NCBI GenBank assembly: GCA_903884235.1
Contig: CAISEB010000016.1
Span: 1 to 64,000, forward strand
Length of the DNA: 64,000 nt
DNA from: an uncultured Pseudomonadota bacterium
GTDB taxonomy: Bacteria > Pseudomonadota > Gammaproteobacteria > Steroidobacterales > Steroidobacteraceae
Direction: 5' to 3'
How positions within the stretch are numbered: the first letter of the stretch is position 1; the number at the start of each line of letters is the position of its first letter. Made by a program: the position numbers and the translations under genes. This document shows, in pieces, positions 59,895 through 61,855 of this stretch. The notes under the pieces were generated by a model, which worked only from the letters and a program-made list of their open reading frames with translations, made no database searches and was not told where the DNA came from.

Positions 59895-59989
59895 GAGGAC
59901 GGCGCCTTGTCGCTGCTACCATGTCCGGGAGGGGCCGTCATGGTCCCGGGCATTCTTGCAGCGGGCGGAAAGCAGGGTCAAGGAACTCG

Positions 59990-60784
59990 ATGCGTTGGAC
60001 CGGAAAGCTCATGGGGGCCCTGCTCGGTGCAGTGGCGGGGGGTGGCCCGATCGGGGCGGTGATCGGGGCCGTGCTCGGCCACGGTTTCGACGCCACCGAG
60101 GAGGAACGCGCGAGCCGCGACCCCCGGGTCCTGCAGGCGTTGTGGTTCGACACGGCGTTCGCCGTCATGGGGTTCCTCGCGAAGGCGGACGGCCGTGTCT
60201 CGGAACGGGACATCGACGCGGCGCGCGGAGTCATGCGCCAGTTCGGCCTCGGCGAGGAGGATGTCCGGCGGGCGATTGAGGCGTTCACGCGGGGCAAGCA
60301 GCCGGACTACCCGGTCGAGGAGTCCCTGGCCCGCCTCGCCAAGCTCTGCGGCCGGCGCCATCCGGCGCTGCAGGCCTTCCTGGAGGTGCAGATCCGGGCG
60401 GCGCTGGCCGGTGACGGGGTGGACGGGCGGATCAGGGCCCTCCTGGTCGGGATCGGGGCGCGGTTCGGCTTCGCCGAGATCGAGGTCGTGCACCTCGAGG
60501 CACTGCTCCGGGACCGTGCGGGTCCGGGGGCGGGGGGCGGCGCGGGATCCGGGCGAGCGGGCCGGGGGGCGTCGCTGGAGGAGTCCTACGAAGTCCTCGG
60601 CATTGCGGCCAGCGCCAGCGACGCAGAGGTCAAGAAGGCGTATCGTCAGCAGATGAGTGAGAACCATCCCGACAAGCTCGCCGCGCGCGGGTTGCCGGAA
60701 TCGATGATGGACCTCGCGAAACAGAAGACGCAGCGGATCCGTGAAGCCTACGAAGTCATCTGCGCCGACCGCGGCCTCCGCTGA
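59990..60784 (+). CDS. djlA: DjlA co-chaperone (TerB and J domains)
   Basis: A membrane-anchored DnaJ-like co-chaperone for DnaK. It has 264 residues (E. coli 271): an N-terminal Gly-rich helix (about 6-30, with GAVAGGGPIGAVIGAVLG), a TerB-like middle (about 46-170) and a C-terminal J domain with HPD in MSENHPDKLAARG. The start is ATG 59990, with AAGGAA upstream. It is followed by an antitoxin-like gene at 11 nt. Confidence 0.92.
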   Translation: MRWTGKLMGALLGAVAGGGPIGAVIGAVLGHGFDATEEERASRDPRVLQALWFDTAFAVMGFLAKADGRVSERDIDAARGVMRQFGLGEEDVRRAIEAFTRGKQPDYPVEESLARLAKLCGRRHPALQAFLEVQIRAALAGDGVDGRIRALLVGIGARFGFAEIEVVHLEALLRDRAGPGAGGGAGSGRAGRGASLEESYEVLGIAASASDAEVKKAYRQQMSENHPDKLAARGLPESMMDLAKQKTQRIREAYEVICADRGLR

Positions 60785-60794
60785 AGCGAAGCCC

Positions 60795-61148
60795 GTGAGT
60801 GGCGCGATCCCGCCGGCCCTGCAGGGGTTCTTCCGCGTGGCCGACGCGTGGGAACTCTCCGAGATCCAGCAGTGCAAGCTGCTGCGCTGCCCATCGGGTG
60901 CGGTGCTGCGCCGCTACCGCGCGGGCCAGGGCCCGCGACTGACGCCGGCCCAGCAGAAGCGCATCCAGATCGTCACCGGCATCCACGCGGCGCTCGCCAA
61001 GAGCGGCATGGCCGGCGAGCGCGGCTTCCGCTGGATCCACGAGCCACGCCGCGAGGCGCCGTTCCGCGGCGAGACGCCCGTGCACTACATGATGGACGGC
61101 GGAGTCGACGCGCTGGTGGCGGTCGCGCACCTGCTGTCCGGTCGCTAG
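60795..61148 (+). CDS. Xre/MbcA/ParS-type antitoxin-like protein (orphan)
   Basis: A 117-residue protein from GTG 60795; an ATG at 60741 inside djlA would add 18 residues. The first half fits the Xre-type HTH of this family ([20 protein letters not shown], then [19 protein letters not shown]). The second half fits the MbcA/ParS toxin-binding (DUF2384) domain: [20 protein letters not shown] and [16 protein letters not shown]. Such antitoxins usually pair with a RES-domain toxin, but none is adjacent; djlA and rpe flank it. So it is either orphan or has another job. Confidence 0.7.
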
Positions 61149-61180: not shown

Positions 61181-61855
61181 ATGCAGCCACTCATCGCTCC
61201 GTCGATCCTCTCCGCTGATTTCGCACGCCTCGGCGAGGAGGTCAGCCATGTCCTCGCCGCCGGCGCCGACATCGTCCACTTCGACGTGATGGACAACCAT
61301 TACGTCCCGAACCTGACGATCGGGCCGCTGGTCTGCGAGGCCCTGCGCAAGCACGGCATCACCGCCCCCATCGACGTGCACCTCATGGTGAAGCCCGTCG
61401 ACCGGATCATCCCGGACTTCGCGGCCGCGGGCGCCAGCTGGATCACCTTCCATCCGGAGGCCAGCGAGCATGTCGACCGCACGCTCGGCCTGATCAAGGA
61501 GCTCGGCTGCAAGGCCGGCCTCGTGTTCAATCCGGCGACGCCGCTCGACTACCTCGATCACGTGATGGACAAGCTGGACGTGATCCTGCTGATGTCCGTG
61601 AACCCCGGGTTCGGCGGCCAGAAGTTCATCCCGACGGCGCTGACGAAGCTCGCCATGGTCCGCGAGCGGATCGCCGCGTCCGGCCGCGACATCCGCCTCG
61701 AGATCGATGGCGGGGTGAAGGTCGACAACATCGGCGCGATCGCCGCCGCCGGGGCCGACACCTTCGTCGCCGGCTCCGCGATCTTCGGCTCGAAGGACTA
61801 CGCCGCGACGGTGCGCCAGATGCGCGCCGAGATCGCCGCGGCAACCGCCGCCTAG
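61181..61855 (+). CDS. rpe: Ribulose-phosphate 3-epimerase
   Basis: Rpe interconverts ribulose-5-phosphate and xylulose-5-phosphate in the pentose phosphate pathway. It has 224 residues (E. coli 225), a TIM barrel with metal site: [43 protein letters not shown]-type segment ([12 protein letters not shown]), [14 protein letters not shown] and [12 protein letters not shown]. Convergent with the Crp-like gene. Confidence 0.97.

What the first reader, a model, noticed from the sequence alone, without database searches (positions are those of the whole stretch)
60795..61148. Orphan Xre/MbcA/ParS-type antitoxin-like gene between djlA and rpe
Both the HTH half and the DUF2384-like half are recognisable, yet no RES toxin is adjacent. 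It overlaps the djlA operon closely. It may be a domesticated regulator or silence a remote toxin.
Basis: partly seen in the sequence, partly recalled or inferred. Interest (0 to 1): 0.55.

Follow-up and report, generated by a model that had tools for sequence, protein, structure and literature searches.

The report
Toxin-free ParS-like regulator in housekeeping operon
A small gene descended from the antidote half of a bacterial toxin-antidote pair appears to have lost its toxin and its toxin-gripping residues, and is kept, like a housekeeping gene, in one branch of a bacterial family, most likely as an ordinary gene regulator.

Summary
The gene lies 10 nt after djlA and 32 nt before rpe and has the Xre/MbcA/ParS antitoxin fold (the six best entries are such antitoxins, Z 14.6 to 6.6). 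No RES gene is adjacent. Both Pfam matches are below the curated cut-offs. It is vertically kept: 21 of 21 clade A loci lie between djlA and rpe. 13 of 15 same-genus genomes have it; the other two gave no clear rpe match either. It is about as conserved as Rpe, more than DjlA. A second set (9 of 24 matches checked) lies between pyrF and tRNA-Leu. Against 21 RES-paired ParS-type antitoxins, 30 orphan A and B rows lack the Asn, Arg and Asp of the toxin-binding half and the Arg-Gly that follows. Clade A stops one residue before the NatR Arg119 position, a toxin contact. 11 of 18 carriers have no RES match, so silencing a remote RES toxin cannot be the general role. The own-genome RES gene has its own antitoxin and is split by an IS66-like element. 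Best reading: a domesticated DNA-binding regulator, target unknown.

The parts
60795..61148 (+). Orphan ParS-like gene (117 aa from GTG 60795)
60741..60743 (+). Alternative GTG start, 54 nt upstream in frame, inside djlA; a GTG near this place occurs in several but not all orthologues
60828..60968 (+). Helix-turn-helix half (residues 12-58); residues 12-44 have 87% mean pairwise identity in clade A
61029..61145 (+). DUF2384-like half (residues 79-117), 81% mean pairwise identity in clade A, without the RES-contact motifs
60987..60989 (+). Codon of Ala65, where 20 of 21 ParS-type rows have Lys and 11 of 11 NatR-type rows have Arg
61047..61049 (+). Codon of Arg85, where 20 of 21 ParS-type and 11 of 11 NatR-type rows have Asn
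61125..61127 (+). Codon of Ala111, where 20 of 21 ParS-type rows have Arg (NatR-type rows vary)
61146..61148 (+). Stop codon at the place where 19 of 21 ParS-type and 11 of 11 NatR-type rows continue with Arg-Gly or Arg-Ala
59990..60784 (+). djlA, upstream gene (ORF opens at 59921; the better start is ATG 59990, preceded by AAGGA)
61181..61855 (+). rpe, downstream gene, 32 nt after the orphan

Best explanation
The gene is a former ParS-type (Xre/MbcA/ParS) antitoxin that lost its RES toxin partner and was domesticated as a chromosomal regulator. It sits between djlA and rpe in four genera of one family (which includes a MAG named Steroidobacteraceae) and is probably co-transcribed with them (inferred). 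I think it works as a small DNA-binding protein: the HTH half binds an operator, and the old toxin-binding half now serves as a dimerisation or partner-binding module that no longer needs a RES protein. Shown here: homology and fold, fixed place, purifying selection, absence of an adjacent toxin, and loss of RES-contact residues. Inferred: DNA binding, dimerisation and regulation. The regulated target is unknown.
For: Fold: the model matches NatR (Z 14.6), MbcA (10.4), the 8GUG antitoxin (9.5) and P. putida Xre (6.7) over 104-110 of 117 residues; the next chain, MqsA, has 5.2. Upkeep: djlA-orphan-rpe in 21 of 21 clade A loci; 13 of 15 same-genus genomes carry it and the two others gave no clear rpe match. 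Constraint: dN/dS against the window 0.04-0.38 (12 finite of 13), near rpe (0.03-0.27) and mostly below djlA (0.15-0.51). Toxin contacts lost, 21 orphan A and 9 orphan B rows against 21 RES-paired ParS-type rows: Asn85 position N in 0 of 30 v 20 of 21; Arg111 position R in 0 of 30 v 20 of 21; Asp115 position D in 0 of 30 v 20 of 21; RG/RA right after residue 117 in 0 of 30 v 19 of 21; position 65 Ala in 21 of 21 clade A v Lys in 20 of 21. NatR Arg70 and Arg119 coordinate a phosphate at the toxin interface and are called highly conserved (PMC11535050, passages); position 65 falls on the Arg70 place (alignments, tag offset inferred) and the model's last residue pairs with NatR 118. HTH kept: R40, Y41, R42, R48 invariant in 30 of 30; net HTH charge +5.6 in A, +3.0 in B, +2.7 in ParS-type rows.
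Against: DNA binding was not tested. The recognition-helix Thr (T in 19 of 21 ParS-type rows) is Val in 30 of 30 orphans, so specificity has changed and binding could be lost. Over residues 34-50 orphan B is not more basic than ParS-type rows (+2.7 v +3.0). P. putida Xre alone is a monomer that represses only weakly and needs RES for a stable dimer (PMC12204516, passages), so a toxin-free version needs another way to dimerise. Some orphan B rows keep Arg at position 65 (4 of 9). No operator common to all carriers was found: a CCGTCACGG-like stretch in the purC-djlA gap is absent from L020 and not clear in L041 and L045. The linker and N-terminus are poorly conserved and no start codon is shared.
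Confidence: 0.6

Rival explanations
1. The DUF2384-like half is the working part: the protein is an adaptor that binds a new protein partner, for example in the DjlA chaperone system, and DNA binding is secondary or lost.
For: The C-terminal half is kept at 81% mean pairwise identity in clade A although RES contacts are gone; the recognition-helix Thr is Val in 30 of 30; the gene sits directly behind djlA.
Against: HTH residues are at least as conserved as the C-terminal half (0.867 v 0.814 in clade A; 0.944 v 0.768 in clade B); clade B sits beside pyrF and tRNA-Leu, not djlA (9 of 9 loci checked), so no tie to DjlA is general.
Confidence: 0.2
2. It still acts as an antitoxin in trans: it neutralises a RES toxin elsewhere in the cell or one arriving on mobile DNA (anti-addiction).
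For: Same fold as RES antitoxins; 7 of 18 carriers have a RES match; relatives occur on 182 of 72,556 plasmid records, the ten listed being annotated MbcA/ParS/Xre antitoxin family (RES neighbours there not checked).
Against: Interface residues are lost; 11 of 18 carriers have no RES match; carriage is not associated with RES (odds ratio 0.58, Fisher p 0.41; within the family 0.37, p 0.19); resident RES genes in same-genus carriers have their own antitoxins; the own-genome antitoxin is of the NatR-like type.
Confidence: 0.12
3. It is a decaying remnant of a TA pair without function.
For: No toxin beside it and Pfam scores below cut-off.
Against: dN/dS below 1 in all 12 finite pairs and no stop inside any match; identical place in 21 of 21 clade A loci.
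Confidence: 0.03

Closest known systems
ParS-type antitoxins of RES pairs in the same family, order and class (L149-L151, L153-L163 here)
   Same: HTH plus DUF2384-like halves; L162, L150, L149, L151 and L163 score highest on the orphan profile after the orphans themselves (59.2 to 52.9 bits)
   Different: A RES ORF lies beside each; the 21 aligned ParS-type rows (these except L162, L163, plus others) mostly keep Lys/Asn/Arg/Asp and the Arg-Gly end, the orphans do not
NatR of Pseudomonas aeruginosa (NatR-NatT)
   Same: Best structural match (Z 14.6); core-genome status (PMC11535050, abstract and passages)
   Different: NatR meets NatT through residues that include Arg70 and Arg119 (same passages); the orphan has Ala65 at the first and stops before the second
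Xre of P. putida Xre-RES
   Same: Fold (Z 6.7)
   Different: Needs RES to form a DNA-binding dimer (PMC12204516, passages); the orphan has no RES gene beside it
GndRX of Legionella pneumophila
   Same: A RES-Xre system that its authors describe as the consequence of domestication, in the core genome (PMC12457610, passages)
   Different: GndRX keeps its RES protein; here only the antitoxin half remains

Membership tests
Xre/MbcA/ParS antitoxin proteins | N-terminal Xre-like HTH (PF20432) | tested here: met
   20 of 20 A1 members match at E up to 0.1, best 1.6e-6; the window protein alone, E 8.5e-4, is below the curated cut-off
Xre/MbcA/ParS antitoxin proteins | C-terminal toxin-binding domain profile (PF09722) over its curated cut-off | tested here: not met
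   15.7 bits against 24.5; 9 of 20 members match at E up to 0.1
Xre/MbcA/ParS antitoxin proteins | Overall fold of solved antitoxins | tested here: met
   pLDDT 93.6; Z 14.6 to NatR, first chain outside the family (MqsA) 5.2; Foldseek best E 2e-3, none under 0.001
Xre/MbcA/ParS antitoxin proteins | RES-interface residues of the ParS/NatR branch (Lys/Arg, PN, YLDAxRG) | tested here: not met
   the 8 Xre-type rows do not share this pattern either
Xre-RES type II toxin-antitoxin module | Adjacent RES-domain gene | tested here: not met
   none in the window neighbourhood; no RES ORF in the orphan A and B loci scanned with a RES profile made here
Xre-RES type II toxin-antitoxin module | Neutralises a RES toxin | not testable with these tools
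   needs an expression assay
DNA-binding repressor | Binds a specific operator | not testable with these tools
   the purC-djlA gap gave no operator shared by all carriers

The most novel reading that the evidence does not exclude
A RES-system antitoxin has become a toxin-independent transcription factor fixed in the core genome of several genera, binding DNA without the RES-dependent dimerisation that its characterised relative P. putida Xre needs; a further orphan lineage (L023, L025) beside chemotaxis-like genes suggests that this has happened more than once.
Probability: 0.35. Interest if true: 0.6.

Novelty: new variant of a known kind. Interest (0 to 1): 0.4.

Why it matters
For an orphan antitoxin it is usually unclear whether it is a remnant, an anti-addiction factor or a regulator (my own framing). 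Here paired relatives, loss of named toxin contacts and constraint on the gene can be read side by side, which makes the domestication of a RES antitoxin testable: does the protein bind DNA alone, and what replaces RES in dimerisation?

Tried and rejected
Remote RES toxin: searched PF08808 in the own genome and 60 relatives and found no association with orphan carriage. Adjacent toxin of another kind: the neighbours are djlA and rpe. Mobile origin: no match in 50,697 phage records; 182 plasmid records match, all under 60% identity. Operator search: alignments of the xre-rpe and purC-djlA gaps showed conserved purC-promoter-like sequence but no inverted repeat shared by all carriers. Solved relatives by sequence: the A1 profile found only two ankyrin-like chance matches, so the fold comparison was needed. 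Loss in G004 and G012: not shown, as neither gave a clear rpe match. Tree (113 columns, few for 65 rows): orphans A and B form one side of a starred branch (100/100), B lying inside A beside the g16 rows; the program warns that the join with orphan C may be a long-branch effect, so common origin with orphan C is not claimed. Rows dropped: the pairing count used 41 of the 44 RES rows (left out: the second piece of the own-genome gene and two G022:C7 pieces); the Xre-type rows were left out of the tree; L152 was kept unassigned because its contig ends about 350 bases after the gene. The first script to extract antitoxins took wrong frames and was replaced. Papers: no paper held 'orphan antitoxin' + Xre + 'RES domain', antitoxin + Xre + 'RES toxin' + orphan or the terms; one search listed 23 papers on orphan or solitary antitoxins, none opened; some searches showed only the top of 68, 22 and 1,815 papers. 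So I do not claim that nothing is in print.

Full report
What is there. The window holds an ORF of 117 codons from GTG 60795 to the stop at 61146-61148, 10 nt after djlA and 32 nt before rpe, all on the + strand. purC lies divergently upstream and a Crp-type gene convergently downstream (these two names are mine from the translations; djlA and rpe rest on NCBIfam equivalog matches over cut-off). The protein matches Pfam PF20432 (Xre-like HTH, E 8.5e-4) and PF09722 (toxin-binding domain, E 0.015), both under the curated cut-offs. Of the 20 members of alignment A1, 20 match the HTH model and 9 the toxin-binding model at E up to 0.1. AlphaFold2 on 19 sequences gave pLDDT 93.6. VIA-align put 8QNL and 8QNQ (NatR), 6FKG (MbcA), 8GUG, 9R35 and 6GW6 (P. 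putida Xre) on top, Z 14.6 to 6.6, then MqsA at 5.2 (the tool warns that helical models can reach such Z by chance, but here all six top entries are one family and span the whole model). Foldseek's best E was 2e-3.

Start codon. The GTG at 60795 is not shared: in L006 and L007 the codon is GTC, in L008 CCG. An upstream GTG near -54 to -60 is present in many but not all, and others have a GTG 12 nt downstream. The leader before residue 5 is not conserved. Translation is probably coupled to djlA (inference).

Distribution and place. Same-genus genomes: 13 of 15 carry it, the own one included. G004 gave no rpe match and G012 only a weak one (E 8e-4, 42% over 48 residues), so the region is probably missing from those assemblies. 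Three further genera of the family (8 genomes) have it too. In all 21 clade A loci, djlA is upstream and rpe downstream (16, 5; djlA or rpe is cut by the contig end in some). A second set, orphan B, has 24 matches in 23 genomes of two genera; the 9 aligned have 45-54% identity, 9 of 9 lie between pyrF and tRNA-Leu(tag), and tig follows in 8 of 9. Of six family members without clade A whose rpe was fetched, four have djlA directly before rpe (L142, L144, L145, L146) and two have purC there (L141, L143). Of 217 family genomes, 55 match at E up to 1e-4: 21 clade A, 23 clade B and 11 weak ones (1e-7 to 1e-15); in 10 of these 11 a RES ORF lies beside the match and in the eleventh (L152, G109) the contig ends. 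At E up to 1e-12, 26 of 296 order genomes and 4 of 369 class genomes match; all matches below 1e-40 are in the own family, and the five weaker ones (G161, G320, G415, G585, G592) lie beside a RES ORF. One named record of the set is a Steroidobacteraceae MAG (L045).

Constraint. Against the window, 13 orthologues give dN/dS 0.04-0.38 for the orphan (12 finite), 0.03-0.27 for rpe and 0.15-0.51 for djlA (several dS values are high or saturated, and all pairs share the window, so this is a rough yardstick). In L006-L019 the orphan has 77-91% identity to the window, Rpe 76-92%, and DjlA 49-66% (L016, 77%, covers only 66 residues of DjlA); in L020 the figures are 70, 76 and 44%.

No toxin. The own genome has one RES locus, on contig C6, in two pieces (profile positions 8-110 and 101-152) about 2.4 kb apart. 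Between them lie three ORFs that look like IS66 tnpA, tnpB and tnpC (this naming is recalled from the sequences and was not searched). Beside the RES piece is a PF09722 antitoxin whose best solved relative is NatR (E 8.4e-17). In 60 relatives, 29 have RES. Of 18 orphan carriers among them, 7 have RES and 11 do not (odds ratio 0.58, p 0.41); within the family 7 of 18 carriers against 12 of 19 non-carriers have RES (p 0.19). Of 42 PF09722 matches, 32 lie within 1 kb of a RES match, and 32 of the 41 RES matches used have such a neighbour. The nine unpaired RES matches include one each in the carriers G034 and G016, which remain open; both score weakly on the profile of paired RES proteins (20.2 and 17.5 bits).

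Loss of the toxin grip. I aligned 21 orphan A, 9 orphan B, 2 orphan C, 21 ParS-type, 11 NatR-type and 8 Xre-type rows and the unassigned L152. All 40 ParS-, NatR- and Xre-type rows have a RES match or ORF beside them (one, the own-genome NatR-type row, beside the split gene). They were chosen by similarity to the orphan or by PF09722. At the position of NatR Arg70 the ParS type has Lys in 20 of 21 and the NatR type Arg in 11 of 11; orphan A has Ala in 21 of 21; orphan B has Arg in 4 of 9. The Asn of the PN motif is kept in 20 of 21 and 11 of 11, and in 0 of 30 orphans A and B. The Arg of VRxYLDA is kept in 20 of 21 ParS-type rows and in 0 of 30 (NatR-type rows do not have it). RG or RA follows residue 117 in 19 of 21 and 11 of 11, and in 0 of 30. 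The two orphan C rows lack the Lys, Asn and Arg, but keep the Asp in 2 of 2 and have RG in 1 of 2. The Xre-type rows do not show the pattern (Ala in 6 of 8 at the first position, another tail), so the test holds for the ParS/NatR branch, with which the orphans group in sequence, not for every RES antitoxin. NatR Arg70 and Arg119 coordinate a phosphate at the NatT interface and Arg119 contacts Glu29 of the toxin (PMC11535050, passages seen). The orphan model ends at NatR residue 118.

The HTH. R40, Y41, R42 and R48 are invariant in 30 of 30 orphans A and B; the Thr that is kept in 19 of 21 ParS-type rows is Val in 30 of 30. P. putida Xre uses Arg60, Arg67, Thr68, Lys70 and Arg72 on DNA (PMC12204516, passages); I have not aligned them residue by residue. 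HTH net charge averages +5.6 in A, +3.0 in B and +2.7 in ParS-type rows; over residues 34-50 it is +3.8, +2.7 and +3.0. I read this as kept DNA binding with changed specificity in clade A; for clade B the charge says little.

Reading. The gene is a former ParS-type antitoxin, kept in place and under constraint without its toxin, most likely as a DNA-binding regulator. The point against is that P. [quoted passage not shown] Either this protein dimerises by itself, or it uses another partner. The decisive tests are listed.

Novelty. Orphan antitoxins are a known kind (23 papers with such terms listed), and a RES-Xre system described as domesticated is in print (GndRX, PMC12457610, passages). I saw no paper on toxin-free Xre/MbcA/ParS regulators in the listings, which cover open-licence papers only and show only the top of the longer lists.

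Noticed in passing
L003 4407-7949 (G000:C6, own genome): A NatR-like antitoxin is intact while its RES gene is in two pieces about 2.4 kb apart with an IS66-like element between them: a toxin-antitoxin pair losing its toxin.
   Followed up: partly
59921-59990: The DjlA ORF opens at ATG 59921, but the DjlA profile starts at residue 24 = ATG 59990, which has AAGGA in front; the purC-djlA gap is then longer and holds a promoter-like TTGACC-18-AAGAAT on the - strand (59981-59952), facing purC.
   Followed up: partly
L023 1441-2010 and L025 1441-2022: Another orphan antitoxin-like lineage, without the Lys, Asn and Arg motifs, with methyl-accepting chemotaxis-like ORFs nearby in both and a PilZ-like ORF in L023 (naming by eye, part of that output was cut).
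   Followed up: partly
L021, L022, L101-L107: Orphan B sits between pyrF and tRNA-Leu(tag), with a basic leader (KPRTGPRLVLQP-like) about 20 codons upstream in most rows. G133 has two copies and G008 a second fragment of orphan A at a contig edge; both assemblies carry 5-6% contamination.
   Followed up: partly
L076 (G034) and L074 (G016): RES domains without a PF09722 neighbour in two orphan carriers; weak matches to the profile of paired RES proteins.
   Followed up: partly
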